Shown: positions 27,503-62,520 of the stretch, one piece after another
How the letters are laid out: every line of letters starts with the position of its first letter
Numbering within the stretch: the stretch's first letter is position 1
Assembly: GCA_020746835.1 (NCBI GenBank)
Contig: JAGPNK010000013.1
Location: 1,240,001 to 1,304,000 of the forward strand
Reading direction: 5' to 3'
From: Stachybotrys elegans
Taxonomy: Eukaryota; Ascomycota; Sordariomycetes; Hypocreales; Stachybotryaceae
DNA: 64,000 bases
The notes under the pieces: model-generated
Database searches by the model: none
What the model was told of the DNA's origin: nothing
The model's input: the letters and a program-made list of their open reading frames with translations, nothing else
Translations under genes and position numbers: made by a program

Positions 27503-29560
27503 CTAATAGGGCGCCGGATACCACGGAGGGTTGGCATCTTCCAGATCGTATGACCCAGCAAGCGGCTCGACCCCATACGTCTCCACGTTTGCAACACCGT
27601 CTTCGTCGCCGGTGATGTGGATCTGCTGCCTCGTAGAGATGGCGCTGTCACTCCGCTTGTAATTCTGAGGCCGCAGCGTAATCCCCGACTGCGCGCCCTG
27701 GAAGACGGTAACCGGAAGATCGTAGGTATCGGGCATGTGATGCATGCCCAGGTTGAAGTAGAGAACAATGTCCTCTTGCTCGATGGATTCACCATCGAAG
27801 AAGTCGTTGAAATCGACAGCGATGGCCTGGTCCGACCACCCGGACGACCTGGGATGCGCCGAGACGGGCTCGGAATCCTTGCGTCGAAGGGCATACATGT
27901 GGTGGGTTGCCCAGTTGACCAAGTTCCCGAACACAGTCGAATTCTGGACTGTCAAGTGCGTCGTGGAGCCTGTGGAGGGATAGATTCGGAAACCGGGGAA
28001 CTCTCCGTTGCAGTTAGGCTTATCCTTGTTGACAACTGAATACGCCGCTGCTGCGTTGGGCGCCCAGTTGATCTTTCCCTGGTCCTCATTGGTGACGAAG
28101 CTTCTCTCAACCTTCATCGTGTTGACAACCTCGCCGCCCGACCAGGGGTAAACCTGAGAGTGAGGCACGAACTCGCTCTTGAACAGGGTGTTGTTGGTGC
28201 CGAGAATGTCAAGGTCGGCCTTGAAGTTCAAGACGTGGTCGTGCATGGAGCCCGACAGGTCCTTGCGAATGTGGAAGCCATAGTCCCACGCATTGGTGGC
28301 GTTGACGTTGCTCGAGCCTTGGATATATCCAGAAGCCCGGACGAGGACCTGGATAGACCCGTCGTAGTAGAATTCATAGGTCGTCTGGTAATCGTAGTTT
28401 CCAATCGTGCTGATACTGCGGACCATGAAGGCAATGTTCTTTGTTGCATGGAAGGAGCTCCAGTCATAGTGGCGGCTCATAGGGTAGTCCTTGGGGAACT
28501 CGAACAAGCAGAAGGCGTCGGTGTAGGTTGCATAGCTTGGGCAGTCGTAACCCGGAATAAGGTTGAAGTTCATAAAGTCAATGGTCACGTCGAGATAGGA
28601 CGCGTATGTCTGACTCTCGTCTGGCCCGGCATAATGAGCGAGCGCCTCTTGCATGGCGAGCTCATACACAACCCTCTCGCCCCTGAAGTGAACGTCGTGG
28701 AGAGAAATGCCGGCCGGGCCCGTGGCGACGTAGAAGGAGAAGCCCATCCACGAGACGTAGTTCTGGTCAGGGTCAAACTCGTACCGGGCACCATCCGGAA
28801 GAATGGTGACAGGAGGAGACTTGTCGTCGTGTGGAAGCTCATCTCCATTCCACTCCATCTCTTCGTCATAAGGGTTGGTCGGATCTCGACGCTGGATGCT
28901 GCGTCTTCTCTTCGTCTTCATCTTTCGAGCCTCTGCTGGGGTCTGAGACCTTCGGTTTACAGCCCGCTTTGCAACGCGTCTCATCAGGTCCTCGTTCTCC
29001 TCCTCACACCCTTCGTACACCACGGTGGGGTTACCATTGTTCACGTATGCCAGAGGGGTTGCCTTGGTCGAGTTTCCAATGGGAAGAGGTCTGTTTTCAG
29101 GGCAGCGTTAGACAAGTCATCCCAATGGCGTGATGCATTGACTTACCCAACCATGTATTCTCTCTCAAAGCAGTCTCCGTAACCCATTACACGGGCATAC
29201 CGCGGGGGCTTGGGGCCATTTCCGGCCAGATACGTAGTTGCTTCCGTCTTATTAGGAGGGAGCAGCCACGGGCGGTAGTCCCAATACTGGACATCACGAA
29301 GGCTTTGCCTTGTTCAGCAATGGTCCACAGTGCGGCCGATGAGCTCCTTCTTACCTTGACGAATTCTGGCGTTCCAAGAAATCTTCAATGTCGGATGCTT
29401 CCGAGTTGGAAATTCCGGCAAAGATGTTCTCATACGGCGCAGTGGAAGCAATGTAGGGTCCCCTTGCATCGCTGGCGGCACGGGGAACGTTCTGAGATCC
29501 GGCAACTGTGGCAGATGCGCCACTGATGGCGAGGGCCGTGAGGGAGGCAAGAGTCCACAT
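27503..29560 (-). CDS. Secreted copper amine oxidase 1, short form with basic insert
   Basis: Exons 29560-29355, 29302-29147 and 29090-27503 (introns 52 and 56 nt) give 649 residues. A signal peptide (MWTLASLTALAISGASA) is present. The tyrosine that becomes the TPQ cofactor is in TIGNYDY. Copper ligands are the HDH of SMHDHVLNFKADLDI and the His in LGMHHMPDTYD. The enzyme oxidises primary amines to aldehydes, NH3 and H2O2. Compared with the 775-residue paralogue at 52734, the stretch between EYMVGPLPIG and the YVSWMGFSFYV core is about 90 residues shorter. In place of an N3-like domain it holds a highly basic segment with many dibasic pairs (RRVAKRAVNRR, KTKRRRSIQRR), possible Kex2 sites. A TATATATA at 29635-29643 lies about 80 bases upstream. 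Confidence 0.92.
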
Positions 29561-44136: not shown

Positions 44137-45265
44137 CTTTGCACTCAGGGATATTCTCTATGCTTCTTCGCAGTCCAATCAATGGTTGTTTGGCCCTGAA
44201 GCCATGCCCCATTTATCTTGTTATCATCGAGGGCAAGGGTATTTTGGGCAAGCTGATCGCACAAAAATACATGGGCACTAGCGAGAGAGGCTGAATAGAT
44301 GGAGCGGGCGACTTGCCCTTGCTGGGTAGGGTAGCGAAGTCTTGGACCCAGGTGTGCCACGGAGTCGTCCGTTTCAGGAAAGGGACTGGTCTAGAGCGAG
44401 ATGCGCTGGCCATGTTGTGGGACTCGAGGGCCATCCGTCGTTGCCGACCAGCCTCTGTGGGCCGAGATATCCTCGAGTAGCTGCAGCTGAATGTCTAGCT
44501 GGCCGAGCGGGTGAGGGGCAGCGGGTCACTATCGGATCATAATAAATCGGTGTGCAATATCGTAGTTACGGGGCAAAGCGGTGGTGACAGCGTTGTTTTC
44601 CTCGGGAGCACTCTGCGTCTCAGAACCTTGCATTGCCCCAAATGACTGCCAAAGCCATGTCCTCTCCCAGAGGCATTGAGGGCCATCCCGGGAACACGAC
44701 TCGGGGATAAGTAATTAGTATCGGGCGCGCTATGTACGAAATATCGCAGCTGACAGGTGGATCGGATGAGTGGCGCATGTGCTCCGAAGCTTTCTCGGAT
44801 ATAATGGGCTTCAATAACCGCCTCATCGGGGCTCCCACGTGGAAACACTTGTCACGCCAGGAACCCCTGGCCACGGCCGGCGCTTGTCGAGGCTTGTCGA
44901 GGCTTGTCCCGAAACGCCCCAGTTCGTCGATTCTAGACGTTCAAGGGCTTTGCTGGCCCGCGAGCTATTGAGATTTGACACCCACTACCCAACGGCCTTG
45001 AGACTAGCCCGATCTCCTGTCATCTCTAGGTGACGCAGCAAGGGAAATTGCTTGGCCCGATGATACGGGTGGCGATGCTAGCGAGCGCCTCCGGAGTATC
45101 TGCATCTCCAAGGCCGTCTTGGTCTTGTTGCCGCCATACAAGAGCCTGGCGAAGCCCACACAGTCCACCGGACTGCTTCCATCTCTGTAGATCGATGCTA
45201 AATTCGCTCATCACCCCGGAGTCTCTAAGGGTAGAGAAGTGGCATTGAAGCCTACAGCTGACAAG
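44137..45265. other. Intergenic 1.1 kb
   Basis: Contains a three-unit 10-nt tandem repeat at 44882-44911. No family-like ORF or clear TATA element upstream of the CE8 gene. Confidence 0.5.
44882..44911 (+). repeat. 10-nt tandem repeat, three units
   Basis: Two perfect GCTTGTCGAG units and a diverged third (GCTTGTCCCG), about 360 bases before the CE8 start codon. Confidence 0.85.
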
Positions 45266-48200
45266 ATGCTCAGGAAATCACTCGTTTTACTTCTGGGCCT
45301 CTCTGGGTCGAGTGCCGTGGCAGGGAACTTGGAGTGTCGGGCACAACCCCCACAGCCCTCAAGCAGCGAGACGCCTTCTGCCGCTTCTACAACCTCCGCC
45401 TCCGTCTCTGCGCAGCTTCTTGATGCCATTGTCAATGATGGTGTCATTGCTTCAACCCCGAGCACCTTCCCAGTCGTCACGACGACCACCGCCACCACCG
45501 CTGCAAGCATCTCGACGACGTCGGCCAACGTAGCCGTGACAGTTGCAGCAGACGGGTCTGGCCAGTACTCCAACGTCAACTCGGCAATCTCCTACGCCCA
45601 GGCCAACAATATCCCGACCGTCACCATCAAGGCCGGCACATACACCGAGACCATCTCTATCCAGGCAACTGCGGCAGTCACGATTGTTGGAGAGACTGGA
45701 TCGACCGGCGAAGACTACTCGGGCAATCTTGTTACTCTGAGCAATGGTGGCGGCAATGCTCCTGTTGTCGAATTTTTTACCAGCGCCTCCAAGGGGGTGA
45801 CGTGGCAAAGCGTCAACTTTATCAACTCGAACCCTTCCTCTTCCGCCGGAGTCATCTTCCTTCGCGGCTCTAGAAACGCCTTCTACTCGTGCCAGATCAC
45901 AGCTGCGGGCGAGGTTGCCTTCACAGGCAGTTATGCTACCGGAATCATCGCCAGCTCGTACATCGAGGCATTCTCGAAGGTCATCTATGGCTACGCGAGC
46001 TTGTACATATACGACTCAACCATCACGGCGACCAACAACAACGCCCTGCTGGTGTACAACCAGGGCGGAGCTGATGGTACCGGCAAGCTCTTCAACTCCA
46101 CCATCGTCTTCGATGCGTGCCAAGTGTCGAGAAAGTCGGGAGCCACCAACAAGAATGTCTTTATCGCAGCTGCCAATGGCGATGGCTCCGTCGTGGTTCT
46201 CAAGGACACATCCATCGCCGACTTGATCGCGGCGACCGGCGTGTACGTCGACGCCAAGACGCAGGGCCCCAGCAACTCTTACATCGAGTTTGACACTACG
46301 GGGCCTGGATGCTACGAAAAGAACGCTGCAGCTCGAGCACCTTATGTATCTTTGGTCACGGACTCGGCCAAGCTTGCCCCCTACGACATCTCAAGCTTCT
46401 TCACCACCGCCCATTCTTCTGTCGCTGTCGCCGATGTTGCTTGGATTGACGATTCTGTCTTGTCGTCAATCGAGGAGGAAAAATTGGGATCGAGCACCTC
46501 GACTACCTCACTGCCATCCACTCTCCCAGAATCCAGCGTTGTCTCAAGCGTCAGCACTGCAGACACGACCACCACTTCGACTGAAGACGTGACATCGACC
46601 ACGGCTGCTGCAACTACGACTACCGCTGCTGCGTGCTACCCCTCGTCTGTGCCGTCTACTGCGCTGATCGTTGGTCCTTCTGGTTCATGCGCGACCTACA
46701 ACAGCATCGCTGACGCTGTGGCCGTGCTCCCCAATGATGCTACCTCGCAGTACATTTACATTCTGGCTGGCACCTACAACGAGAAGATTAAAATCGAGCG
46801 TGTCGGCATCACCATTGTTCGTGGCGAGTCTGATGACACAATGTCCTCTTCGTCCAACAAGGTCACCATTGAGAATTCGTCAGGTGTTCTGTCCAGCGCA
46901 GGCGGTTCCTCAGGGACCGCTACGTTCTCGGCCACCAAGTACGAAGCCAAGCTTGTCTCTTTCTACAACATCAATTTTGTGAACAGCTACCCCGCGGCCG
47001 CAAACACTGTGGCGATTGCTGCCTACTCCAAGGGTACCAAGGTGGCCTTCTATGGCTGCAATGTCAAATCTTCTCAGGGTACTCTATACCTGGACTATGG
47101 CAACTTCTTCTTCAGCGGTGGTCGTATCGAAGGAACAACCGACTTTGTCTGGGGTATTGGCGCGGGATACTTTTACAACTCGGTGATTGTGTCGACCAGC
47201 TCTTCTACTGGCCAGACCATCGCTGCACAGCGCTACCAGGGCCAATACGGCGGCTCGAGACTCGTCTTTGACGGTTGTGCTGTTGTGCCTTCGAGCAACG
47301 CTGTTCCCCAGCAAGGAGACTACCTCGGACGCGACTACAGTGCCAATGCCCAGGTTGCCTTCATCAACTCATACCTCGATGCACACATTGCCCCGGCCGG
47401 CTGGCTGATCGGCAACGCTGCTTCTTTCACTGGCACCTTTGCCGAGGCGAACAACACGGGACCAGGCTACACCCCAGCTCGTCGCCCCTCCGCCGTCACG
47501 ATACTCACCGACACATCCATGTACTCGGCAAAGAATGTCCTGGGGGATGACAGTTGGCTGGACTCTGCTGCTATCGCCCCGCTGCAGGTCTGGTCTGACT
47601 CCGTCTACAGCGCGTCGACAACCACCTCGGCCACCCAGTCTGCGACAGCGACCGCCACTTCTGCCTCCAACGTCTTTACGGTTGCTCCGACTCCCGCCGC
47701 CGGAGAGTATGGCAGCGTCTCGTCTGCCGTCGCCGCGCTTCCAGCCGACGGGAAGGAATGCACCATCTTTATCAAGGCCGGTTCCTATGAGGAGCAAGTC
47801 AGCATAACTCGAGCTGGCAAGGTTACCCTGCGCGGCGAGACGGATTTCGCAAACGACTTTACGCAAAACAAGGTCCTCATCAAATTTAGCCGAGGCGTTT
47901 CGACTAGTCTGGGACAGAATGAGCAGACCCCAGTCATGAACTGGAAGAATACTGCCGGGGATGGCCTGGATCTGTACAACCTCAACTTCACCAACACCTA
48001 CCCGCAGACATCGAACACCGCGGCGCTTGCTGCTGATTTCTTCGGCACAAAGATGGCCGCCTACGGATGCGCCTTCTCCGGGTTCCAGGACACGCTTCTG
48101 GTGAACCAGGGTGTCCAGGTCTTCAGCAACTGCTATGTGGATGGCAGCGTCGACTTCATTTGGGGTTACAGCAAAGCCTACTTTCATCAGTGCTACATCG

Positions 48201-51200
48201 CCTCCAACACGGCTGGCGCGTACATCACTGCCCAAAACAGACCCAATCCGTCTTGGGCAGGCGGGTTCGTCTTTGATAGATCCGTCATCACATACACACC
48301 AAGCCTGACGACATATGGCACTACATACCTGGGCCGACCTTGGTCGCAGTATGCCATCACGGTGTACATGAACTCTTTCTTGGACAAACATATTGCGCCT
48401 GAAGGTTGGGCGGTGTGGCAAACGAGCAACCCTCAGACATCCAATGTCCTCTTTGGAGAATACAAAAACATTGGTCCCGGCAACTGGACGAATAGCCGAG
48501 CCTCTTTTGCTTCTCAGCTCACCGATGCTCAAGCCTCGCAATACTCCCTAGCCTCTTTCATCGGGGACGCGACCTGGTTGAACAACACCGCTTACGACCT
48601 GGTGCCGAGTTACAGCTTGACACAATCAGCCAACCCGTCAGACTCCAACCCCGCGCCAATCCTGTCCCACCCTACCAGTGGTACGGAGCCTCCCGAGGGA
48701 GCGGTTCTGGTAGCAGCGGATGGAAGCATTTCGGGCGCGCACACAAGCCTGACTGCAGCCCTCGCCAGCTTGCCCAAGGACGCGAGCGCTCAGATTGTCT
48801 TCATGTATCCCGGAACGTACAACGAGCAAGTGCCAACCGTGAACCGCCCTGGCCCAATCATGATCATCGGATACACCAGTGATGCACCTGGCAAGAGTTA
48901 CAAGACCAACCAAGTTACCATTACGCAGTCTCGAGGCCTCTCAGTGAGCCCTCTACCTGCTGGGCACAGCAACGCCGAGACCGCGACCATTGCTACTGCT
49001 AGTAGCCGAATCTCGTGGTACAACATCAACTTGGTCAACTCGGACAACTTGGACGGTGCCAAGCCGAGCTACGTCACGCTTGCGGCCAGCATTTACGGCG
49101 ATAAGATTGCCTTTTACGGTTGCTCGTTTATAGGATGGCAAGACACGCTCCTTACCGGTGCCACAGCCGGAAGCCAGTACTACGAGAGCTGCTATATTGA
49201 CGGCGCCATTGATTTCATCTGGGGCTACTCGAAGGCGTACTTCAAGGGCTGCACCATCGCGGCAAAGAGAGCCAAGTCGGCCATCACTGCCCACAGCCGT
49301 GCAAGCTTGTCGGCAATTGGCGGCTACATCTTTGACCAGTGTCTCTTCACCGAGGCCGAGACAGCCACTGTTGATCTTACTGGTCAGGTCTACCTGGGAC
49401 GCCCATACTCTAAGTATGCCCTTGTGGTTATCAAGAACAGCTTCCTGTCCGATATCATCCAGCCTGCGGGTTGGAAGACTTGGTCTGCCACTGACCCCCG
49501 TACCGACTTCATTACCTTCGCCGAGTATAACAACTCCGGTCCCGGTAATTGGGAGAACAACGCTGCTGCTCGCCAGGCTTTCCAGAATGCTACACTTTTG
49601 ACCAGCGATTCTTACCCCCTCGCCTCGGTCATGCCCAGCACCGACTGGATTGATATGACGCACTGGGATCAGATTGAAACTCCTCAGCCCCCTCCGCCGC
49701 CGCCTCCGGCCCCCTACGATGGAACCAAGCCACCCGCTGGCGCCTTTATCGTATCCAAGAACCCAATTGATGGCCTGACAACATACGACACCATTCAGGC
49801 TGCCTTGAATGCACTTCCCGTGTCGAGCAAGGCTCTTGGCATGATCTTTATCTACCCTGGTGTGTACGATGAGCAATTGATCATCAGCAAGTCTGGTACT
49901 ACCATGCTTCTCGGCTACAGCGCTTCGCCAGATGATTACTCTCAAAACCAGGTCACCATCAACTTCAACAAGGGTATCGACACTCAAGCGGATGCATCCA
50001 ACTCCGACTCTGCGACAGTCTATGCCATTGGTAACTATCTGCAAGCCGTCAACATCAATTTTGCCAATACCTTCGGAACCACCCTCAAGTACGTCTTTTT
50101 TTCTCTGTCTTACCATCTTCTCTCGCTAACATTTTCCAGCTATGCCTCCGTTGGCTTTGCTGTGAGAAGCAGCAAGTATGCTTCTCTGTACGGCTGCCAG
50201 GTGTACGGCAACCAGGACAGCCTGCTCATTAATGGATACTTCTTTGCATCCAACTCTTACATCGAGGGGAATATTGACATGATCTGGGGTTCTGGCGCTG
50301 GTTACTTCCTCAACAGCACCATCTCTCCCAACCGCGACGGAATCGCCATTACGGCTAGCAAGCGTTCCACCAACACCACGGCTGCTGGCTTTGTATTTGA
50401 TCAGTGTACCATCACGCCTGCCAAGGGTGCCAGCTACAACTCAGTCTCGCTTGGTCGACCTTGGAATGCCAACGCCCGCGTTGCCTACATTGACAGCTAT
50501 CTTGATTCCTGCATCGAGCCCAGTGGATGGGATCAATGGACCAAGTCGGATCCGCGTACTCAGGGCGTCATGTTTGGAGAGTTTGCAAACGATGGCCCGG
50601 GTGCTGGCTCGGCTTATCGTGCACCCTTCGCGACACAGCTTACCGCCGATACTGCCGCCCAATTCCAGCTTGCCAACTTCTTCAGCCTCACCAGTTGGAT
50701 CAATATGACGCTGGTTCCCGCGACACCCTTCAATGCTGGAGCAGTGGTGATTCCGACAACCACGACCACTCCGGTCTCGACAATCACCACTTACTTCACC
50801 CAGGTCACGACGCTCAAGCAGACTGAGATAACCACTTTCCAGGCGCCCGACACCACGTCCACAATCAAGACCACTTTCACAATTGACGCTGCGACGACCT
50901 TTACCCCTCCGCCAACCACTCGTACCACTGTAATCAAGTCAACAACGACTTCAGTCGCCACGGTGGAAGAGCCCGATGCCACCACTACTGTCAAGGCCCG
51001 AGTGACTGTTGACATTGGCACAACCATCACTCCAGACGCCGTGACCGAGACGTCAACTGAAGAGCTGACATCAACCATCACAAGTGTTGTCACCAAGGAA
51101 GCTGATACCACCACTATCAAGTCTACAGTATTCACGACAAGCTGGCACACAGTAGCCCCCAAGGCCACGACAGCGACCGAGGTTGTGCGCTCGACCGAGT

Positions 51201-52051
51201 CCTTCACAGTGACCAGCACACCGAAGCCAGTGACTCTGAAGTTGGCCACAACAATTACGGTTGGTGACGATAAGGCCACAACTGTCACGGCGAAAGCCCT
51301 CACCACGACATCGACTGTCTTTGTCACATCCACCAAGGTGGTGAAGAAGACTACTACACTCGCGTGTCTCCCAACAAAGGGACCATCTCGCAGATCTCTG
51401 GATGAACTGTATCTCGAGGAGCGGGCCATTGGTGACGTAACGGTTACCGTCACGGTCCTGTCGACTTTGAGTACTTTTATCAAGACTTCCACCCTCACAC
51501 TCCCTGGAAGCACTGCAACTACTGAGCTCATCTCGACAAAGACAATTGGCAAGCCCACTACTCTGAAGCCCGAGACGGTATTTGAGACAGCCTTGTCTGT
51601 CCAGACACGCTATTCCACCCTGACTCATTCCGGAAGCACACTGACAACGACTGCTACTGAGGTGGTGTCTTCTGGGAAAACAGAGGTACTCAAGCCGTCT
51701 ACCGTCCAGGTGGTGGTTACGAGCGTCAAGACTACGGTTGCCAAGTCGACTGTGCAGCCTCCGGATGTGACAGAGACTGTCATCACCACCAAGACCGTGA
51801 AATCCACCACGACTCTCCCACAGGTCAAACAGACTGTTACGCACCTCGAGGGCGTGGAAGTTACCAAGCTTGTTGTTCTCCCCGTCTCGACCTCGACGAC
51901 ATGGAATACGGTTCGATCAACGCTGAAACCAAGCGCGACAGTGTTGATCCGCAGCACCGTTACAAAGACCAAGACATCCAAGATCTCGGCTATGGTGACA
52001 AGCTGGGTCACAAAGACAAGCAAGGGCGCCAAAGCATGCACGGCATCCTGA
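45266..52051 (+). CDS. Giant secreted protein with five tandem pectin methylesterase (CE8) domains and Thr-rich tail
   Basis: Exons 45266-50088 and 50140-52051 give 2244 residues; the 51-nt intron has GTACGT, CTAAC and CAG and no stop. The ATG at 45266 gives the signal peptide MLRKSLVLLLGLSGSSAVAG. CE8 beta-helix units lie at about residues 88-400, 455-785, 801-1122, 1142-1472 and 1486-1808, each closing with a Trp motif (VAWIDD, DSWLDS, ATWLNN, TDWIDM, TSWINM). CE8 uses two Asp, a Gln and an Arg/Trp pair. D1 has none of the motifs. D2 has SQGTL, TTDFVWG and LGRDY. D3 has FQDTL, VDFIWG and LGRPW. D4 has WQDTL, IDFIWG and LGRPY. D5 has NQDSL, IDMIWG and LGRPW. Linkers are Ser/Thr- or Pro-rich. 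The last 437 residues are Thr/Val-rich, like a glycosylated wall stalk, with no GPI signal seen. Expected role: pectin demethylation outside the cell. Confidence 0.92.
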   Translation: MLRKSLVLLLGLSGSSAVAGNLECRAQPPQPSSSETPSAASTTSASVSAQLLDAIVNDGVIASTPSTFPVVTTTTATTAASISTTSANVAVTVAADGSGQYSNVNSAISYAQANNIPTVTIKAGTYTETISIQATAAVTIVGETGSTGEDYSGNLVTLSNGGGNAPVVEFFTSASKGVTWQSVNFINSNPSSSAGVIFLRGSRNAFYSCQITAAGEVAFTGSYATGIIASSYIEAFSKVIYGYASLYIYDSTITATNNNALLVYNQGGADGTGKLFNSTIVFDACQVSRKSGATNKNVFIAAANGDGSVVVLKDTSIADLIAATGVYVDAKTQGPSNSYIEFDTTGPGCYEKNAAARAPYVSLVTDSAKLAPYDISSFFTTAHSSVAVADVAWIDDSVLSSIEEEKLGSSTSTTSLPSTLPESSVVSSVSTADTTTTSTEDVTSTTAAATTTTAAACYPSSVPSTALIVGPSGSCATYNSIADAVAVLPNDATSQYIYILAGTYNEKIKIERVGITIVRGESDDTMSSSSNKVTIENSSGVLSSAGGSSGTATFSATKYEAKLVSFYNINFVNSYPAAANTVAIAAYSKGTKVAFYGCNVKSSQGTLYLDYGNFFFSGGRIEGTTDFVWGIGAGYFYNSVIVSTSSSTGQTIAAQRYQGQYGGSRLVFDGCAVVPSSNAVPQQGDYLGRDYSANAQVAFINSYLDAHIAPAGWLIGNAASFTGTFAEANNTGPGYTPARRPSAVTILTDTSMYSAKNVLGDDSWLDSAAIAPLQVWSDSVYSASTTTSATQSATATATSASNVFTVAPTPAAGEYGSVSSAVAALPADGKECTIFIKAGSYEEQVSITRAGKVTLRGETDFANDFTQNKVLIKFSRGVSTSLGQNEQTPVMNWKNTAGDGLDLYNLNFTNTYPQTSNTAALAADFFGTKMAAYGCAFSGFQDTLLVNQGVQVFSNCYVDGSVDFIWGYSKAYFHQCYIASNTAGAYITAQNRPNPSWAGGFVFDRSVITYTPSLTTYGTTYLGRPWSQYAITVYMNSFLDKHIAPEGWAVWQTSNPQTSNVLFGEYKNIGPGNWTNSRASFASQLTDAQASQYSLASFIGDATWLNNTAYDLVPSYSLTQSANPSDSNPAPILSHPTSGTEPPEGAVLVAADGSISGAHTSLTAALASLPKDASAQIVFMYPGTYNEQVPTVNRPGPIMIIGYTSDAPGKSYKTNQVTITQSRGLSVSPLPAGHSNAETATIATASSRISWYNINLVNSDNLDGAKPSYVTLAASIYGDKIAFYGCSFIGWQDTLLTGATAGSQYYESCYIDGAIDFIWGYSKAYFKGCTIAAKRAKSAITAHSRASLSAIGGYIFDQCLFTEAETATVDLTGQVYLGRPYSKYALVVIKNSFLSDIIQPAGWKTWSATDPRTDFITFAEYNNSGPGNWENNAAARQAFQNATLLTSDSYPLASVMPSTDWIDMTHWDQIETPQPPPPPPPAPYDGTKPPAGAFIVSKNPIDGLTTYDTIQAALNALPVSSKALGMIFIYPGVYDEQLIISKSGTTMLLGYSASPDDYSQNQVTINFNKGIDTQADASNSDSATVYAIGNYLQAVNINFANTFGTTLKYVFFSLSYHLLSLTFSSYASVGFAVRSSKYASLYGCQVYGNQDSLLINGYFFASNSYIEGNIDMIWGSGAGYFLNSTISPNRDGIAITASKRSTNTTAAGFVFDQCTITPAKGASYNSVSLGRPWNANARVAYIDSYLDSCIEPSGWDQWTKSDPRTQGVMFGEFANDGPGAGSAYRAPFATQLTADTAAQFQLANFFSLTSWINMTLVPATPFNAGAVVIPTTTTTPVSTITTYFTQVTTLKQTEITTFQAPDTTSTIKTTFTIDAATTFTPPPTTRTTVIKSTTTSVATVEEPDATTTVKARVTVDIGTTITPDAVTETSTEELTSTITSVVTKEADTTTIKSTVFTTSWHTVAPKATTATEVVRSTESFTVTSTPKPVTLKLATTITVGDDKATTVTAKALTTTSTVFVTSTKVVKKTTTLACLPTKGPSRRSLDELYLEERAIGDVTVTVTVLSTLSTFIKTSTLTLPGSTATTELISTKTIGKPTTLKPETVFETALSVQTRYSTLTHSGSTLTTTATEVVSSGKTEVLKPSTVQVVVTSVKTTVAKSTVQPPDVTETVITTKTVKSTTTLPQVKQTVTHLEGVEVTKLVVLPVSTSTTWNTVRSTLKPSATVLIRSTVTKTKTSKISAMVTSWVTKTSKGAKACTAS

Positions 52052-52733: not shown

Positions 52734-55061
52734 ATGCTCTCTTACTATCTGTCGGCCGCTCTTGGCCTGGCCACCGTCGTCTCCGCAGCCGGAGCCCGGA
52801 CCTCCACTCGTGAGCGGATTGAGAGGCAGCTTGAAGGCACCTGCGGTATCTTTGAGCCAGCTCCCACGGTCCGAGCTCCGCGCAAGAATGTCTGGGCGCA
52901 GATGTCTGCCGAGGATAACGTCGCTGTTTGGAATCTGCTCCATGATCCAGAGACAGGACTGAACCTGACGGACCCTGCTGAGGCGACTCTGACGGACAAT
53001 TACGTCTTCTGGATCGACACTCTGCCCGTCAACAAGACGGACGTCCTGCCCTATCTGAAGAGCTGCAGCCATCCTCCGCCGCCAAAGTATGCCCGAGCTG
53101 TCATTTTCGCCGGCGGCAAAGATGACCCCGACTCTCAGGAGTACATGATCGGACCACTGCCCGTGGGACCCGAGACACGCGTTGAGAAGCTTGACTACAT
53201 TTTCAACGGCGGAGATGGCGGCCGCGTTCCATACAATGCTCGTTACTTCGATGGCAAGAGGTCCGCCGCTACTGATCCCCTCCTCGCCTCTATCATGGCC
53301 AACATCTCCGACATAACCGAGGACCTCATTGGCGGATCATACTTTGGTTCTGACAACGAAAACACCACCCTCTGGGTATCCAGCCCTACGCCAGTGTCGT
53401 ACGATGGAACCCAGGCTTTCCGAAACATCATGTTCCGCTACCCCGGACCGGCGACCTATCTAACGCCACTCGACTTTTTCGTGCTGTTGAACTGCACTGG
53501 CACAGACCCAAGCCACTACCGGCTCCGCGGCTTCGTGACGGCCAGTAGATTGTTCACATCAGTTGCGGAGCTGCGAGAGGCATACGAAGCCGGAGAGCTA
53601 TCCAACGAAATCAAGCAGACACGGAATACCGACTGGGCCATGCTCGACTATAAGCCTGAGCTGGGCCAGCGCGATCTGGAAAGCAAGCTGGCACCGCAGA
53701 GCCTAGAGATTGGCGGCAAACGCTACCGCGTCGATGAGAAGGAGCGCTATGTCGAGTACATGGGCTGGAGCTTCTACGTCGCCTACACCCGCACGCTTGG
53801 CGTCACGTACCACGACATCAAGTACAAGGGCGAACGTATCTTGTACGAGCTCTCGCTCCAGGAGGCCGCTGCCCAGTATGCAGGCTTCCAGCCCAAGGCA
53901 GCCAACACTGTCTACCATGATACCTACTACGGCCTAGGCACGTACATGGGTACTCTTGTCGAAGGCTTCGACTGTCCCTTTGGCAGTACCATCTGGAATC
54001 TGACATACCACGAAGGCAACAGGTCCATTACCAACGCTGACTCCTTCTGCATCTACGAGTCTGATTCGGGATACCCCATGTCGAGGCACCGCTATGAAGA
54101 CAGCACCGACTATGGCTTCAGCCACCTGGGAACAATCAAGGGCACAGCTCTGACGACCCGTACCATTGCTACGATCGGCAACTACGATTACATGTTTGAC
54201 TACATTTTCCATGTCGATGGCTCGATTGAGATTGTCGTGCGCGCTTCGGGCTACCTCCAGTCTTCCTTCTTCTACCCTGATCAGGGTCGTTTTGGCCCCC
54301 GCATCCAGCAGGGCACGCAGGGCTCTCTGCATGACCACATCCTTACCTACAAGGCCGACTTCGACATTATTGATACCGCAAACAGCCTTGAGGTCAGTGA
54401 ACTCGTGCTGGTCAACCAGTCGCAGCCGTGGTTCCCCGAGCTCGGACTCTTTGAGCAGATGGAGTTGTCGAAATCGACCATGGACAAGGAGCAGCAGTTT
54501 AACTGGATGCCCAACAACCGCGCCATGTACTGCATCGTTAACCCCAATGCTACCAACGCGTGGGGGGAGAAGCGTGGCTACCGCATTGTTCCTGGCAAGA
54601 GCAACATTCACCTGACACTGAATGACTCGCCCTTTTCGCGCAAACAGACGCCTTTCACCAAGACTCACCTGGCGCTCACACGCCAGCGAGACACTGAGCC
54701 ATTTGCAAACAGCTGGGCCAATGTAAACCTTCCCTGGAAGCCCCAGCAGGACTTCCTCAAGTTCTTTGATGGCGATGATGTCGTGGAGGAAGATGTGGTG
54801 CTGTGGTTTAACCTCGGAATGCACCACTTTACCCGCGCCGAGGACGTCCCCGTCACTTTGTACACCGAGGCTGTAAGCAGCATCGTTTTTGCGCCGCAGT
54901 CGTTCAACGACAGGGCCCAGGATGGAGACATCCTCAACAGGAGATGGATTACCTACAACTCCGAGACGGATGCTTTGGAGTACGATGATTATGGTGTCGA
55001 GCTTGGGCAATGCACGGTTAAGCTGACCGAGCCAGTGCTGGGCATCAACAGGAATGGATAG
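52734..55061 (+). CDS. Secreted copper amine oxidase 2, full length
   Basis: 775 residues, intronless. A signal peptide (MLSYYLSAALGLATVVSA) leads into the small N2/N3-like domains, then the large catalytic domain from about residue 330 (YVEYMGWSFYVAYT). TPQ-forming Tyr is in TIGNYDYMFDY. Copper ligands are the HDH of SLHDHILTYKADFDI and the His in LGMHHFTRAEDVP. It converts primary amines to aldehydes with release of H2O2 and NH3. This is the usual length for the family, unlike the shortened paralogue at 27503-29560. Several N-glycosylation sequons (NLT, NKT, NIS, NTT) fit secretion. Confidence 0.95.
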   Translation: MLSYYLSAALGLATVVSAAGARTSTRERIERQLEGTCGIFEPAPTVRAPRKNVWAQMSAEDNVAVWNLLHDPETGLNLTDPAEATLTDNYVFWIDTLPVNKTDVLPYLKSCSHPPPPKYARAVIFAGGKDDPDSQEYMIGPLPVGPETRVEKLDYIFNGGDGGRVPYNARYFDGKRSAATDPLLASIMANISDITEDLIGGSYFGSDNENTTLWVSSPTPVSYDGTQAFRNIMFRYPGPATYLTPLDFFVLLNCTGTDPSHYRLRGFVTASRLFTSVAELREAYEAGELSNEIKQTRNTDWAMLDYKPELGQRDLESKLAPQSLEIGGKRYRVDEKERYVEYMGWSFYVAYTRTLGVTYHDIKYKGERILYELSLQEAAAQYAGFQPKAANTVYHDTYYGLGTYMGTLVEGFDCPFGSTIWNLTYHEGNRSITNADSFCIYESDSGYPMSRHRYEDSTDYGFSHLGTIKGTALTTRTIATIGNYDYMFDYIFHVDGSIEIVVRASGYLQSSFFYPDQGRFGPRIQQGTQGSLHDHILTYKADFDIIDTANSLEVSELVLVNQSQPWFPELGLFEQMELSKSTMDKEQQFNWMPNNRAMYCIVNPNATNAWGEKRGYRIVPGKSNIHLTLNDSPFSRKQTPFTKTHLALTRQRDTEPFANSWANVNLPWKPQQDFLKFFDGDDVVEEDVVLWFNLGMHHFTRAEDVPVTLYTEAVSSIVFAPQSFNDRAQDGDILNRRWITYNSETDALEYDDYGVELGQCTVKLTEPVLGINRNG

Positions 55062-55247: not shown

Positions 55248-56947
55248 CTAAACCTGGGAATGCTCGGTCTTAACCTTTTGGAGAGGATCTTCGTCGCCAA
55301 AAGCCTCGACGTGATACGTCTTGAACTTCCTGGCAGAGACCTTCTTTGCGAATAGCAGGTTCAGCTCCTCAAATGTGCGATCCTTGGTTTCAGGCAGGCG
55401 GAAGAAGGCCCAGACAAATACGAGGAAGGCCGTGGTGCCCCAGAAGAATCCCGTGTATCCCTTCAAGTTCCACTCCGTCGGGTTCATGAAGTAGGGCTGC
55501 AAGACTCCTGCAATAACAGCGCAGATTGCGTAGGCATTTCGAGCCAGGCAAATCGTCTTCTGTCGGAGGCGCGTAGAGCCAATCTCAGCAGGCAGAGCCC
55601 AGCCCAGTTGACCCGCGGAAAGCTGGAAGGTGAAGGTCCAGATCAACGTGAGGACGGCTTGGACCATAGCCACAGAGTCGTTGCTGGTGCGGGTGTTGAG
55701 CGCGCCAATGACATAGAGGATCACGCCCATGGCAAACATGCCCCAGACATAAGCGGTTCGTCGTCCGACATATGGCATAATGGCGAACCACGCAACAAAG
55801 CAAGCAAAGAGACCCATAGCGTTTCCGCCAACATTGAGGTAATACGTGGTCTGCGAGTCGAGGCCAACCTGCTGGAAGAAGTAGGTGCTGTTGTAGGCAA
55901 AGTATAGACCCGAAAAGATCTGGCCAGCAAAGGTCATGCAAGCAATCTCTGTTCGGCGCAACTCGTCACCCTTGAAGCAGTCTCGGTACGACGTACCAAC
56001 TGACAGCTCCTCCTCGAGGCGGTTGGTGTATACGATGAGGCCAAGCGTCTCTCGGATCTCCTCGTCGGAAGCGTTGGGGCGGAGCCTACGAAGAGACTTT
56101 TCAGCATCATCCTCCCTTCCGATGCGGACGAGGTGCCAAGGGGTATCAGGCGCGAAGCACAGAATAGGCACAAGAATGACAGGCCAGAACCACTGGATGG
56201 CGAAGGGAATACGATAGGCCCAAGCGGTGTCGTTGCTCACCAGACCTGCGAGGACGCCGGCGGCAATGAGCTGACCCATAATGAAGCACATCTGTCCAAC
56301 GAATTAGCCATGTGTCAGGTTAATGGTTGTATGGAAATGGCACTCACATTTGTGTAGCTAGTCAGGTAAACTCGGAGGCTCATGGGCACAACCTCGGAAG
56401 CATAGGCTGGGGCTGTAGTAGCAAAGATACCCCAGGGCAAGCCGCACAGCACTTGACCAGCCAGCAGCACGCCAGCATTGGGGGCAAAGAAGACGATGAA
56501 GATGAGTGCGCTCAGGGTGACTAGGGCACCAATCAGAACCCTCACGTGGCCCCATTTGGTGACGAGGTATCCGTTGAGGAGGGTTCCGAAGAAGGCACCG
56601 ATACCCGACGCGTTGCCGAGACCGGCCTGCCAGGCTGCTGAGAGCTGGTAGTTGTCGGTGGCCTCGTTGTAGGTTCCGTAGCGCTTGGCAAAGGCCGGGT
56701 AGGCATAGAAGTTGTTGAGCAGGTTCAGGTCGTAGCCTTCCATGACGACGCACATGCAGACCATGAGACACCAGAAGAGGGCGCGAGGGTACTTGCGGAT
56801 GGCTTCACGAACAGTGAGGTCGTGCTCTGTCTGGGCAGCCTGCTTGGCCTTGGTCGTAGTGTCGAGACCGACAGTCAACTGGACCGCGGTCTCGACGCCG
56901 ATGTCCTCCGCATGCGCGACGACTGTGTCAGGGGCCGTCTTGGACAT
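55248..56947 (-). CDS. MFS sugar permease (maltose/hexose:H+ symporter type)
   Basis: Exons 56947-56348 and 56291-55248 (56-nt intron) give 547 residues. The ATG at 56947 starts MSKTAPDTV; an upstream frame has no supporting features. Twelve-helix sugar-porter layout: EGYDLNLLNNFYAYPAF, GLPWGIFATTAPAYASEV, the loop TSYTN|MCFIMGQLIAAGVL across the splice, DTPWHLVRIGREDDAEKSLRRL, and the closing RLPETKDRTFEELNLLF, close to the family PETKGRT signature. The plasma-membrane importer is of the alpha-glucoside type. Next to a GH36 alpha-galactosidase it may carry melibiose, raffinose or other galactosides (inference). Divergent from the Zn2Cys6 gene; TATATATA at 57062-57070 lies about 115 bases upstream. 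Confidence 0.94.
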
Positions 56948-57285
56948 GATGGCGGCTGAGTGATGGAGATGGGAGGACAGGATGTAAGGGCAAAGTAAGG
57001 CCACTAGACAACTGGACTAGAGCATAGGAAAGGAGCAGGTCATCATGAGATACACACACACATATATATACATGTACATGCGGTCGTCTGGGGAAGAAAA
57101 TTCCAGCAGGCTGGCTTGAGGAAGAAACTCCATGTAATTTCATTGGGCAACCCAGTCCCCATGGGGTGGTACTGAGCCCATCTGGGGTAGGCAGCCTGGC
57201 CCAGATTAACTATGAAAGAAAGTTATCCAAGGTCCACGCCGAGAATTACTCCTTTAGGGACAAGCGCCGTGCATGATACGGCTCC

Positions 57286-57304
57286 TTTCGGTCCAGCGCC
57301 GAAA
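57286..57304. promoter_or_regulatory. Candidate Zn2Cys6 dimer site, TTTCGG-N7-CCGAAA
   Basis: A perfect inverted repeat with 6-bp arms and a 7-base spacer, lying between the divergent permease and regulator. Inverted CGG triplets are the standard target of Zn2Cys6 dimers. Confidence 0.5.
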
Positions 57305-57312
57305 AATAGGCT

Positions 57313-57324
57313 CGGTATTATCCG
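57313..57324. promoter_or_regulatory. Candidate Zn2Cys6 dimer site, CGG-N6-CCG
   Basis: A second inverted CGG pair with 6-base spacer, 8 bases after the first palindrome. The spacing matches that of PPR1-type sites. Confidence 0.45.
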
Positions 57325-57831
57325 ACCTCACGATGAAAACAAGGGCTCGGCCCATGCAAATTGTTCACGTGCTGCTATTGGAGCCCATGTTGAGCCGAGT
57401 TTCTCCGATAGCCCTTCACATGTCAGTTGAACCGTCCCTCTCTCACAGAATTGTTACCATGCGAGAGGTGGATAAGTAGAGGTAGTAGCATTGTGTGTTG
57501 CGAGCAGGACGAAGAAACCAACTTGCGAAGAGACATGCCTCAATTGCAATTACATCTTCACCGCCACGTCGGAGAATCCCCGAGAGCCTCGGGTCACTGA
57601 CAGCCACTACGTAGTACAGGAGAAAAAAGGAGCCCACCTCGCGTGGTGGCCTCTTAGCCGCCCCCCTCACTAATATCACAACGAATTAAATAGTCCACCG
57701 TTGACTCAACCAGCCCCCGCTCGCCAAGACATCGGTACGGTAACCCATCATGGATGGGAAGAAAAGCTCTCTTCACCAAGGCGACGAGCAGGGCCTCTGT
57801 TCCTTCGGCAGCCTCCAACCTCTAATCCACC

Positions 57832-59643
57832 ATGCCCCAAGACCAGATCAAACCTCGGCAACAAGCCTGCGATAATTGCCGGTTCCGAAAGGTCAAGTGC
57901 GATCGTGGCCAGCCCTGCCGGAACTGCACCTCGGGAGCCCTCAGGTGCGAGTACCTGCGTGCGGTGCGGAGAAAGGGGCCTCGATGCGGTCATGGCCGGC
58001 GACAGGAGCAGATACGGCAAGGGCTGCCATGCAACGAGGCGTCCATGGACGTCTTCCGTCTTGTCGCACCTCCCACGCAGGCCACCCACCATGGCCTCGC
58101 TCGGAACAGTAGTCAAAGTGTGCGTAGCAATGGGGGATCGCGCTTCAACAGCCAATCGGCTGAAGAATGGCCCTGGTATCTGGAAGCAACAACGCCTGCC
58201 GGCATCACTTGTGCTACTCCGTCCGCCGTGCTCGACGTGTCCCCACCCTCCGTGGGCTGTCTTGAGCTGGACAATGACAACTACACCAAGCGTCTGTCGC
58301 AGTCTCTGGCCGCCCATATCCAAGTTTTCCTAAAACACCTGTTCCCCATCATGCCTGTGGTTGACGACGAGTTTGTCGCCGATGCCCTTCGTCTGGGAAG
58401 CCTGCCGCCGTCTCGTTACGCAGTCATCATTGCAATATGCGCTGCCACACGGATACAGTTGAGAATGGACAGCACCAACCCGGGGGAAAATACCGATTAC
58501 GGACTACCGTCAGAGCCGCAACTAACAGGGGAGATGTTGGTGAATCTTGCCGAGAATGCACTGCGCCAATACAACATCATCGACGATTTCGGACTAGATT
58601 CCATTTTGGCCTCCTTCTTCCTATTTGCCAGCTATGGCAACCTCGACAATCCACGCCACGCCTGGTTCTATCTCAACCAAGCAATCTCGCTCTCTCATTC
58701 TCTGGAAATAACCTCCGAACACGGGTATCGAGATCTGGACAAGGTCGACGGAGAAAAACGAAGGCGAGTATTCTGGGTGCTTTTCGTCACAGAAAGAACG
58801 TTCGCACTGCAACATCGCCGGGCAGTACAGCTACGCGGTACCATCGCTAAACCACAAATCATCGACTCCGAGTGCCCTGTAGTGATGAACGACTTTGTCA
58901 ATCACATCCAAGTCTTCGAGCAGCTCCCGCCCTCACTGTACGTCTGGCAATGTCAAGACGAAAGTACCCAGCTCAGCCTGTCCCCGATAATCAACGAAAA
59001 GCTGTGTGCTATAGAGCCGCATAATTCCGTAATTGAAAGCCAGAGACTCGACACCCTTCTCACGCAGCAATGGCTACGCATCGCCATGTGGAGACTGGCA
59101 TTTGGGAAGAAGCCTGCGACGTCTAGCCGGGGCGCACTCTTACCTACCGATTTACCCATGGATGCGGGGAAACTAATCATGGAGGCGTTGAGCAATGCCG
59201 GACCTCGAACAAGAGACTGCCACGGTATCGGATTGGAGCAAAAGCTGTTTGACATTGGCATCAGTCTGGCCGACTCGGCCCGCATCTCGACATGGAGCGA
59301 TTCGACTCTGGAGGTAGGACCGAAAGATCTTTTAGCCTGCATCATCAAGTCATTATCCCAGGCTCGAGGGTGCTCCTCCCATCTACTGCCTGAGCTTCTG
59401 GAGCACTCTGGGGATATTCTTGGGCCAAGTAGTCCTGCTCCCTTCATTAATTTGCAGTGGAATCTGCCACATGTCACTGGCAGCGGTGAAGAAAGCGCGC
59501 TCGTGGAGGACATCACGACGGCCGAGCCATGCTCCAATGACTGGTCAGTCGACAGCGGTGCAGATTTTTCGGACTCACAGGCATCAATAATAAGTCCCTT
59601 CTGTGATAATATGTCGATTCTTGGGAATGGCTTTGAGCTATGA
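57832..59643 (+). CDS. Zn2Cys6 transcription factor, likely regulator of the adjacent sugar genes
   Basis: 603 residues, intronless. The zinc cluster begins at residue 13: CDNCRFRKVKC, then GQPCRNCTSGALRC, spaced CX2CX6CX5CX2CX6C, followed by the basic RAVRRKGPR linker typical of sugar-responsive regulators of the MAL/AmyR/XlnR style. The central fungal-specific domain is clear (FLKHLFPIMPVVDDEFVADAL, ARHAWFYLNQAISLSHSLE-like helix, KRRRVFWVLFVTERTFAL). It sits between the permease (divergent) and the alpha-galactosidase (tail-to-tail, 30 bases). Local control of both is an inference from position and from the two CGG palindromes. Confidence 0.93.
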   Translation: MPQDQIKPRQQACDNCRFRKVKCDRGQPCRNCTSGALRCEYLRAVRRKGPRCGHGRRQEQIRQGLPCNEASMDVFRLVAPPTQATHHGLARNSSQSVRSNGGSRFNSQSAEEWPWYLEATTPAGITCATPSAVLDVSPPSVGCLELDNDNYTKRLSQSLAAHIQVFLKHLFPIMPVVDDEFVADALRLGSLPPSRYAVIIAICAATRIQLRMDSTNPGENTDYGLPSEPQLTGEMLVNLAENALRQYNIIDDFGLDSILASFFLFASYGNLDNPRHAWFYLNQAISLSHSLEITSEHGYRDLDKVDGEKRRRVFWVLFVTERTFALQHRRAVQLRGTIAKPQIIDSECPVVMNDFVNHIQVFEQLPPSLYVWQCQDESTQLSLSPIINEKLCAIEPHNSVIESQRLDTLLTQQWLRIAMWRLAFGKKPATSSRGALLPTDLPMDAGKLIMEALSNAGPRTRDCHGIGLEQKLFDIGISLADSARISTWSDSTLEVGPKDLLACIIKSLSQARGCSSHLLPELLEHSGDILGPSSPAPFINLQWNLPHVTGSGEESALVEDITTAEPCSNDWSVDSGADFSDSQASIISPFCDNMSILGNGFEL

Positions 59644-59673
59644 AACCGCCGCCAACGTGCCACAGTTTCGGCC

Positions 59674-61892
59674 TCAAACCTTTTCTATAAACACAACCTT
59701 GCTGTCATAGTCTCTAGCGAAGCGGAATTGAAAGCCCCCGTTCATCAACGTAGCTCCCGAGTAGATGTTTTCGCCGTCGACCTTGTACCTTGCTGTCGGT
59801 ACGAGACCTTCCAGTCGGAGCGTGGGGAAGTTATGAACTTGTCTGCGAAGTATCTGAAAGGCAAACAGAACCGCCTGGTTCCCATCTTGCGATATGAAAA
59901 GCGCAGCAGGGAAGTTGGAGTTATCCGGCAGCACGAGGCGGTGCATGTCTCCAGAGATGACAATGGGGTTGATTTTCTCCGCAAGGCCAATTAAGTCGGG
60001 AATCTGCACTCTGTCCTCCTCAGAAATCTTCCTTGGGTCGAGCTCCAACCCAAAAGAGCCGCCCATCATCGCGACATGTGCGCGGAACGTGAGAGGTGTG
60101 GTTCTTCCCGTTATCTCATTCGGGACGGCTGAGAGATGTGCCCCCATGGCCGAAGCGGGATACACAAGAGACGTTCCAAACTGAATATGGATACGGTCCA
60201 AGGCATCAGTGCCATCCGAAGTCCACACTTGTGGGAAATATTGCAAAATTCCGGCGTCAAAACGGCCTCCCCCGGATGCGCAGCCTTCCCAAATCACATC
60301 TGGGAATTTGGTGGTCAACTTCTCGAAGACACGATACATGCCCAACATGTAGGCGTGGTAGTTTTGGGGCGATGGGCTCTCGTGCATGCCGCGGTTGTTA
60401 TCCCACTTGATGTAAGTGATGGGCGCGCTTTCGAGAATGCCAGAGATGGAGTCAATGATGAAGTCTTGCACCTCGGGGAGAGCGACGTTGAGCACGAGCT
60501 GGTTTCTGTTCTCGGTCCGTGGGTTTTCTCCCACATGCAGGGCCCATTCGGGGTGCTTCTCGTACAGCTCCGACTTCTTGCTGATCATCTCTGGCTCTAC
60601 CCAGAGGCCAAACTGGAGCGTTTCGTCGGAGCCTGCTGCTCGCAGCTTCTTGACTCTCTCAACCAAATGACCCAGGCCTTTCGGAAACCTGGTGGTGTTG
60701 ACCTGCCAGTCTCCCAGAGAAGTATGGTCGTTGTGTCGGGGATATTTGTTGCCGAACCACCCATCGTCGAGGACAAAGAGTTTGACGCCAAGCTTAGCTG
60801 ACTCTTCTGCCAGACTATAAATGATGTCCTCATCGAAGTCAAAGTATACGCCCTCCCATCCGTTGAGCAGCACCGGACGCGGCTTGTTGACAAACTGGCT
60901 TTTAATGAGGTGCTGGCGATAGAGGCGGTGGAATTTGCGAGACATGGCCCCAACTCCGGTGTTGCTGAAGACCGAAACACACTCGGGAGATACGAAAGTT
61001 TCTCCAGGGGCAAGAGACCACGAGAAATGATACGGATTCATACCCACCAGCGCACGCGTCACACCCTGTGGGCTCTTTTCGACTTCAACGCTGAAGGATC
61101 CAGTGTAGACAAGAGAGAATCCCCAGGCATGTCCGTATGATTCGGTAGTGTCTGGTGATGTGAGGGCGAGGAAAGGGTTGTTATAATGCGAGCTATAACC
61201 GTTGATGCTGCCAAACCTGTAGGAATATGTCAGCACAGCAAATCTTCGCTGGACCAAAGTATTTCGCACCCTTGTTGGCCATAATCAACCTTGCGGCGGA
61301 TTCGATGGCATTCCCTGGTCCACTCGCCCTGCAGCTGGAGCATTTCGTAATCTCCATAAGGGAAGTCGACACTGAAACTGGCCAGTTTCTCGATGCTGAT
61401 CTTGTCGGTTCCGTTGTTGGTAATCTTGACGCTTCGTACAATGGCATCGAGTTGGGGGTAGATTGAGTAGGATAGCTCGGCGGTGATTGAGCGGTAGCTG
61501 TCCTCGAGGCACACCACCAGAGTTGTGACTTCGTCGTTACGGCCGAATGTGCAGGGCAGACCAGGCAATGGGGGCTTCCCATTCACAATTGTATACGACT
61601 TGTATTTGAAGTCGCACACCGTGTGGCCGGTTTCGTGCTTGATGTGCACTGCTGGTGTCCGGAAGTCGCCTCGGCCCAGGTCGGGGAACTCTCGGCGGAC
61701 ATGAGCGTGGTTCGCCCATCCGCCATCATTGCGAATGATGTGTGCTATCGGGTTCTCATCGACGCTTCCGCCGAAGTGATCCCCAATGAGATCGCCCGTT
61801 TCTTCATCCACGTGGAAGCGGTAGGAAACATTGTTTCCGTTCAAGGCAAACGACAATCCGTCCACAACCACCGCTGCAGGCACGTTAGCCAT
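59674..61892 (-). CDS. Intracellular GH36 alpha-galactosidase
   Basis: Exons 61892-61270 and 61216-59674 (53-nt intron) give 721 residues. The start at 61892 ([13 protein letters not shown]) has no signal peptide, so the enzyme is probably cytosolic, like the AglC-type GH36 group. An N-terminal beta-supersandwich (about 1-310) is followed by the catalytic barrel ([28 protein letters not shown]). The nucleophile Asp is in YIKWDNNRG, the acid/base Asp in [10 protein letters not shown], and CASGGGRFD lies between them. It cleaves terminal alpha-galactose from melibiose, raffinose or galactosides. Its lack of export fits the neighbouring permease: import first, then hydrolyse. An inverted CGG-N5-CCG at 62020-62030 lies about 130 bases upstream. 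Confidence 0.95.
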
Positions 61893-62520
61893 AATTTTTA
61901 GCAGTCGAGGTGCGCGAAGAATATACCCTGCCGGGGTGAGGGCCTCGAAGGAAGGCCTGTTGCTGCCATGATGAACCAATAAAAGGGGCGGCGTTGTTGT
62001 TGGAAACGTAGTCGTTTAGCGGCCCTACCGGTAACCCAATGTTAAATACCGTAATAGTCGATGGATCCTTAGCCGGCGCGTGACAGGAGAGGACTGGATC
62101 GACCTCGCAGTTCCGAGGGAAACCCCGAACATTTCCCCTCACGGCTAGACCCAGTCCTCACCATATCAAGGACTCGGCGGAGGGGCAACGTGGGGCGTTG
62201 ACATGACGAAAGCCCTGTGGAATTACCTACCCTAAACATCTTATGACACACATAGAGGCGTGCCATCATTGGAAGGCGTTCTAGTCTTGTACATGTATTG
62301 GTGTCTTTATCTACGACTTCTCTACTATGGCAGCCAAACTTGTTACCTCCACAGCGTTCTCACCACTACAACTATTCACTAGTAACCAAACCAGCTAGAT
62401 TACAAGAGGCAAGGCCCGTACCCAGTGCCAGCTGTGGGCAAGTCTTGGTAATGGTACGTTACACTCAAAATATATTCGCTTTTACAAGCCCTCCGTATTG
62501 AAACCATTTATTGGGTGTTG
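61893..62520. other. Intergenic: GH36 promoter and CorA-like 3' flank
   Basis: 628 bases. One CGG-N5-CCG inverted pair at 62020-62030; the spacer differs from the two sites in the permease/regulator promoter. No ORF. Confidence 0.45.

What the first reader, a model, noticed from the sequence alone, without database searches (positions are those of the whole stretch)
45266..52051. Five pectin methylesterase domains in one secreted 2244-residue protein
Fungal CE8 enzymes I know of are single-domain, about 330 residues. Here five CE8 beta-helix units sit in one continuous frame with repeated closing Trp motifs, joined by Ser/Thr- and Pro-rich linkers and ended by a long Thr-rich tail. A polypeptide like this could act along a pectin chain in several places at once, or work as a wall-bound scaffold. 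I cannot say whether it has been described.
Basis: partly seen in the sequence, partly recalled or inferred. Interest (0 to 1): 0.9.

Follow-up and report, generated by a model that had tools for sequence, protein, structure and literature searches.

The report
Five-domain fungal pectin methylesterase, two inert
One probably secreted fungal protein strings together five copies of a pectin-modifying enzyme fold in an order kept across many ascomycetes; the last three keep their working parts and the first two have lost them, which suggests that the first two hold the plant-wall polymer while the others modify it.

Summary
Window 45266-52051 is one gene of Stachybotrys elegans, deposited as a 2244-aa pectinesterase after removal of a 51-nt in-frame intron (50089-50139). 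All five CE8 (PF01095) domains pass Pfam's cut-off. It is neither a one-off nor an assembly join: of the 120 homologues listed (300 passed E<=1e-20), 93 show the same five domains in the same order, in four ascomycete classes. In trees each domain groups with its counterparts, so the layout predates those classes.

The new point is a conserved division of labour. D3, D4 and D5 keep the Asp-Asp-Arg triad (119, 118 and 117 of 120). D1 has lost it: the second Asp is Lys in 110 of 110 with a residue there. D2 has lost the first Asp: Gly in 102 of 102. All five lack the first active-site Gln. The tail is Thr-rich and basic with a 21-residue periodicity.

Best reading: a tethered pectin esterase with three catalytic modules, two non-catalytic modules that probably hold pectin, and a basic tail for retention. 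Activity and binding are inferred, not shown. Ten open-access literature searches listed no description. Verdict: a new variant of a known kind, widespread and apparently uncharacterised.

The parts
45266..45325 (+). Signal-peptide-like N-terminus (MLRKSLVLLLGLSGSSAVAG)
   Evidence: Read by eye from the translation; no predictor was run.
45524..46465 (+). D1: CE8-fold domain without the catalytic triad (G215, K238, G305 in P0001 numbering)
   Evidence: Pfam 37.9 bits; triad counts; model matches PMEs.
46652..47581 (+). D2: CE8 domain with the first catalytic Asp replaced by Gly (G605, D626, R689)
   Evidence: Pfam 103.9 bits.
47666..48595 (+). D3: CE8 domain with intact triad (D942, D963, R1024)
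   Evidence: Pfam 161.9 bits.
48686..49663 (+). D4: CE8 domain with intact triad (D1293, D1316, R1379); the Trp of LGRPW is Tyr
   Evidence: Pfam 146.8 bits.
49736..50662 (+). D5: CE8 domain with intact triad (D1634, D1654, R1714), interrupted by the intron
   Evidence: Pfam 122.2 bits in two stretches.
50089..50139 (+). 51-nt in-frame intron, GTACGT...CAG
   Evidence: Comparison of the window's translation with deposited P0001.
50708..52048 (+). Thr-rich, basic C-terminal tail with 21-residue periodicity
   Evidence: no Pfam match; no reliable model.
52049..52051 (+). Stop codon

Best explanation
It is a secreted multi-module pectin methylesterase. SHOWN: five CE8-family modules in one frame, in an order that predates four ascomycete classes; D3-D5 keep the Asp/Asp/Arg triad; D1 and D2 have lost triad residues in a fixed way; the tail is Thr-rich and basic. 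INFERRED: D3-D5 remove methyl esters from homogalacturonan. D1 and D2 no longer catalyse but keep the groove and hold the chain, with Lys in D1 placed where it could meet a free carboxylate. The basic tail retains the protein on polyanionic pectin or on the hyphal wall. Tethering would let non-processive fungal active sites make several neighbouring de-esterifications per encounter, leaving blocks of free galacturonate.
Against: No activity, binding, expression or localisation data. D3-D5 lack the first active-site Gln (Dickeya Gln153), present in 14 of 18 single-domain fungal PMEs compared, so even they may be slow or act on something else. D1 is the least conserved domain (39 of 314 near-invariant columns, D2 63 of 310, against 103 of 310, 129 of 326 and 97 of 292 in D3-D5), which could mean a spacer. 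D1 and D2 are still net negative. 17 of 120 homologues lack D2 and 5 lack D1, at least two of these being records marked partial. The D1 model rests on 20 sequences and its five versions range from pLDDT 77.8 to 58.7.
Confidence: 0.5

Rival explanations
1. The active modules are esterases of a different preference. D3-D5 belong to a CE8 branch with a changed -1 subsite (no Gln153, Trp for Phe202), so their real substrate may be another ester or a particular methylation or acetylation pattern, and D1-D2 are spacers.
For: No Gln at the Gln153 position in any of the five domains over 120 homologues; Trp for Phe202 in every homologue with a residue in D2-D5 (102, 120, 120, 117). Both residues line the -1 subsite in Dickeya (PMC10530356 table passage).
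Against: The Asp-Asp-Arg triad is kept in D3-D5. The four mucoromycete single-domain PMEs compared share the changed loop and Trp, though I do not know whether any was assayed.
Confidence: 0.2
2. It is mainly a wall-bound pectin adhesin or scaffold: the tail sits in the hyphal wall, the five beta-helix domains stick to plant pectin, and catalysis is secondary.
For: Long basic Thr-rich tail with 21-residue periodicity; two inert domains.
Against: Three triads are kept nearly without exception over 120 homologues, which argues for catalysis. No hydrophobic GPI-type C-terminus. The tail has no predicted fold.
Confidence: 0.15
3. It is a polyprotein cut after secretion into single-domain PMEs.
For: Flexible Ser/Thr- or Pro-rich linkers, which proteases often cut (general knowledge). 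Dibasic pairs exist elsewhere: in D1, D2, D4, D5 and the tail.
Against: No dibasic pair in any of the four linkers. The domain order is kept across four classes, and two domains are not enzymes by the usual criteria.
Confidence: 0.13
4. Assembly or gene-model artefact that joins separate genes.
For: None found beyond the unusual length.
Against: 93 of 120 homologues from many assemblies have the same layout; the domains of S. elegans are only 22-39% identical to each other, so they are not collapsed copies; the open frame is uninterrupted.
Confidence: 0.02

Closest known systems
Aspergillus niger pectin methylesterase (PDB 5C1C/5C1E), CE8
   Same: CE8 beta-helix fold; best sequence match in the PDB to the whole protein and best structural match to D1.
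   Different: Single domain, 299 residues in the crystal; keeps the Gln and both Asp motifs in the printed alignment; no tail or extra CE8 domains.
Single-domain CE8 of Mucoromycota (Rhizopus, Umbelopsis, Phycomyces, Gongronella)
   Same: Share with D2-D5 the loop two residues longer without Gln153 and the Trp at Phe202 (four compared).
   Different: One domain, 327-346 aa.
Butyrivibrio fibrisolvens PmeC5 protein (2089 aa)
   Same: Very large secreted PME with additional modules (PMC12109409, passages).
   Different: Bacterial; one PME catalytic domain with a PL9 lyase and adhesin-like domains, not five CE8 modules.
Dickeya PemA D178A (PDB 2NSP)
   Same: D2 lacks the same Asp; the mutant was crystallised with a hexasaccharide (PDB title; alignment).
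   Different: A laboratory mutant (Ala) of a single-domain bacterial enzyme; D2 has Gly by nature.

Membership tests
Pectinesterase, CE8 / PF01095 | Profile match above Pfam's curated cut-off | tested here: met
   All five domains above 27 bits.
Pectinesterase, CE8 / PF01095 | Asp-Asp-Arg catalytic triad in D3, D4 and D5 | tested here: met
   D-D-R in the window's protein and in 119, 118 and 117 of 120 homologues; triad as given in passages of PMC12109409 and PMC10530356.
Pectinesterase, CE8 / PF01095 | Asp-Asp-Arg catalytic triad in D1 and D2 | tested here: not met
   D1 G-K-G, D2 G-D-R. These two are CE8-fold relatives and are not filed as enzymes.
Pectinesterase, CE8 / PF01095 | First active-site Gln (Dickeya Gln153) | tested here: not met
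   No Gln in the aligned column of any of the five domains over 120 homologues; it lies in a loop of different length, so the position is approximate. Four single-domain mucoromycete relatives lack it too, so it may not define the family.
Pectinesterase, CE8 / PF01095 | Right-handed parallel beta-helix | tested here: met
   D1 model, pLDDT 77.8, best matches are PMEs. D2-D5 were not modelled; their fold is inferred from sequence.
Pectinesterase, CE8 / PF01095 | Release of methanol from methylesterified pectin | not testable with these tools
   Needs purified protein.
GPI-anchored protein | Hydrophobic C-terminal signal | tested here: inconclusive
   The C-terminus ends KTSKGAKACTAS and looks unlike one; read by eye, no predictor was run.

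The most novel reading that the evidence does not exclude
A natural pectin ratchet. Two CE8 modules were converted into substrate-holding modules: one by losing the same Asp that was mutated for a crystal complex, the other by putting Lys in place of a catalytic Asp. They feed the chain to three active modules on the same polypeptide, giving a fungal PME block-wise (processive-like) action that single-domain fungal PMEs are said to lack. The device would have been kept since before four classes of filamentous ascomycetes split.
Probability: 0.3. Interest if true: 0.75.

Novelty: new variant of a known kind. Interest (0 to 1): 0.57.

Why it matters
The pattern of de-esterification (random or in blocks) decides how pectin gels, how it is cut by polygalacturonases and pectate lyases, and how plants sense damage (established knowledge, recalled). 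A conserved five-module PME, present in Fusarium, Verticillium, Colletotrichum and Aspergillus records and mostly labelled 'pectinesterase', 'pectin lyase fold' or 'hypothetical protein', would be an overlooked player. Its fixed inert modules make the idea of pseudo-enzyme domains as polysaccharide-binding modules directly testable. It also warns that counting CE8 genes undercounts CE8 domains, and that calling all five domains enzymes overcounts active sites.

Tried and rejected
Assembly or gene-fusion artefact: rejected on homologues and low inter-domain identity. Recent tandem duplication: rejected, each domain forms its own group across classes, and only two short arrays (3.1 copies of 9 bases, 2.0 copies of 15 bases) were found in the DNA. 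All five domains as one clade apart from single-domain PMEs: weakly rejected (AU p 0.0335); D2-D5 as one clade not rejected (p 0.087). How the five arose is left open, because the branches joining them are poorly supported. Tail structure: AlphaFold failed (pLDDT 28.8, pTM 0.22), so no fold is claimed. D1 as a free-standing protein: of 11 hits 8 match the D1 profile; of these, 2 also carry a scrap of D3 (P0242, P0247) and 1 a scrap of D4 (P0248). They look like fragments or short gene models, but P0241 (517 aa) and P0245 (477 aa) could be real D1-only proteins and were not followed up. Dibasic processing in the linkers: no dibasic pair there. Literature: 10 of 10 searches used; none listed a paper whose title or abstract start told of a fungal multi-CE8 protein. 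That covers an open-access library only, the hits were seen as listings, and only three papers were opened, as passages. Two papers (EMBO J 2007, doi 10.1038/sj.emboj.7601816; PMC4714216) were not held.

Full report
WHAT IS THERE. The + strand carries one open frame, 45239-52051. From the ATG at 45266 it reads 2261 codons with five matches to PF01095 and no other Pfam family at E<=0.01. Scanned alone, D1 to D5 score 37.9, 103.9, 161.9, 146.8 and 122.2 bits against a cut-off of 27; the tail has no Pfam match. The best database hit is P0001, 'pectinesterase [Stachybotrys elegans]', 2244 aa. It equals the window's translation except for 17 missing residues and one changed residue at the join (2243 of 2261 identical). 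The 17 residues are a 51-nt intron at 50089-50139, inside D5, that keeps phase and has no stop. S. elegans is a hypocrealean ascomycete.

NOT A ONE-OFF. A search over the whole length returned 300 proteins at E<=1e-20; the best 120 are listed, 1482-2742 aa long. Over aligned columns the 119 others are 48.6-72.0% identical to P0001, median 60.1. I labelled their domains with five profiles made from the same set, which is somewhat circular. 93 of 120 read D1-D2-D3-D4-D5; 17 lack D2; 5 lack D1; 5 gave irregular (split or repeated) calls. By my class labels from genus names, the 93 comprise 69 Sordariomycetes, 13 Dothideomycetes, 4 Eurotiomycetes, 4 Leotiomycetes and 3 unnamed; the 17 without D2 are 9 Eurotiomycetes, 6 Sordariomycetes and 2 unnamed. 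The listing is sorted by score, so it favours full-length relatives. Within S. elegans the five domains are only 22-39% identical to each other, while each is 54-74% identical at the median to its counterpart in the other proteins.

AGE AND ORIGIN. In a tree of 87 rows (69 domains from 14 proteins and 18 single-domain PMEs), each of D1-D5 is one side of a branch with support 99-100. A stricter tree of 41 rows agrees (100% of bootstraps for each). So the five-module layout existed before these classes separated. How the five arose is unresolved: the branches joining them are weak, D4 sits next to ordinary PMEs (79/85), the four mucoromycete single-domain PMEs fall among the modules, and holding D1-D5 together is weakly rejected (AU p 0.0335).

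DIVISION OF LABOUR. Papers give the CE8 triad as two Asp and one Arg (PMC12109409 and PMC10530356, passages), in Dickeya numbering D178, D199 and R267. Across the 120 aligned homologues: in D1 the D178 position is Gly 108 and Ser 2 of 110 with a residue, the D199 position is Lys in 110 of 110, and the R267 position is never Arg (116 with a residue). In D2 the D178 position is Gly in 102 of 102 with a residue, D199 is Asp 100 and Glu 2, R267 is Arg 101 and Lys 1. D3 is D-D-R in 119 of 120, the last gapped at Arg. D4 is D-D-R in 118 of 120, with one D-D-C and one A-D-R; the Trp of LGRPW is Tyr in 120 of 120. D5 is D-D-R in 117 of 120, the rest gapped.

ACTIVE-SITE SURROUNDINGS. All five domains lack Gln at the Gln153 position. 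It lies in a loop that is two residues longer in D2-D5 than in ordinary fungal PMEs. The Gln is present in 14 of 18 single-domain fungal PMEs compared; the four without it are the Mucoromycota, which share the long loop. D2-D5 carry Trp for Phe202 wherever a residue is present (102, 120, 120 and 117); 5 of the 18 single-domain PMEs do too. Both positions line the -1 subsite of the Dickeya enzyme (PMC10530356 table passage). So D3-D5 have a changed -1 subsite, and D1 and D2 are inert by the usual criteria.

TAIL AND LINKERS. The last 447 residues are Thr-rich and basic: S+T 0.43 and charge +20 at the median over 114 homologues. Identity at multiples of 21 residues in the S. elegans tail exceeds all 500 shuffles, and 21 is the best of the periods 9-39 in 84 of 115 homologues, which are related and so not independent. 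No fold could be predicted. The four linkers contain no dibasic pair and are Ser/Thr- or Pro-rich.

HOW IT PROBABLY WORKS. D3-D5 should hydrolyse methyl esters. D2 has by nature lost the Asp that was mutated in the Dickeya enzyme crystallised with a hexasaccharide (PDB 2nsp title; alignment), so it is a good candidate for holding substrate without turning it over. D1 swaps a catalytic Asp for Lys, which could meet a free carboxylate. The basic tail may keep the protein on polyanionic pectin or on the hypha. A published simulation study says that fungal PMEs are not processive (PMC3913658, passages); three active and two holding modules on one chain would be a way round that. Only the anatomy is shown; binding and block-wise action are inference. 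Against it: D1 and D2 are the least conserved modules (39 of 314 and 63 of 310 near-invariant columns, against 103 of 310, 129 of 326 and 97 of 292 in D3-D5), all five modules are net negative at the median, and some lineages lack D2.

WHAT IS KNOWN. The nearest described large PME that I saw is the 2089-aa Butyrivibrio protein with one PME domain, a PL9 lyase and adhesin-like parts (PMC12109409, passages). Ten searches of the open-access library listed no paper that told in title or abstract start of a fungal protein with several CE8 domains. Subscription papers are not covered, and listed papers were not read in full.

SETTING. The window also holds plant-biomass genes: GH43, AA9 with CBM1, two copper amine oxidases, a sugar transporter, a Zn2Cys6 regulator and GH36. 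The same genome has three other places with CE8 matches, one on the same contig about 24 kb before the window.

Noticed in passing
window 47369-48541 and 48953-50116, - strand: Two long antisense frames (390 and 387 aa) lie opposite D2-D3 and D4-D5; probably by-products of codon usage on the coding strand.
   Followed up: no
window 27503-29044 (-) and 52734-55061 (+): Two copper amine oxidase genes in one window; the second begins about 680 bases after the PME gene's stop.
   Followed up: no
window 55248-61979: Sugar transporter, Zn2Cys6 regulator and GH36 alpha-galactosidase next to the PME gene, a possible co-regulated pectin/galactoside group.
   Followed up: no
L007 (G000:C5:1215160-1215760, - strand): Another CE8 gene on the same contig, about 24 kb before the window's start.
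   Followed up: no
P0123, P0127 (Berkeleyomyces rouxiae), P0126 (Penicillium digitatum), P0177 (Hypoxylon): Proteins of 359-398 aa that match only D3 or D5 strongly (418-535 bits), possibly a secondary break-up of the five-domain gene into single-domain ones.
   Followed up: partly
P0147 (Rhizoctonia solani, 550 aa): Matches the CE8 profiles in three stretches, possibly a two-domain basidiomycete PME.
   Followed up: no
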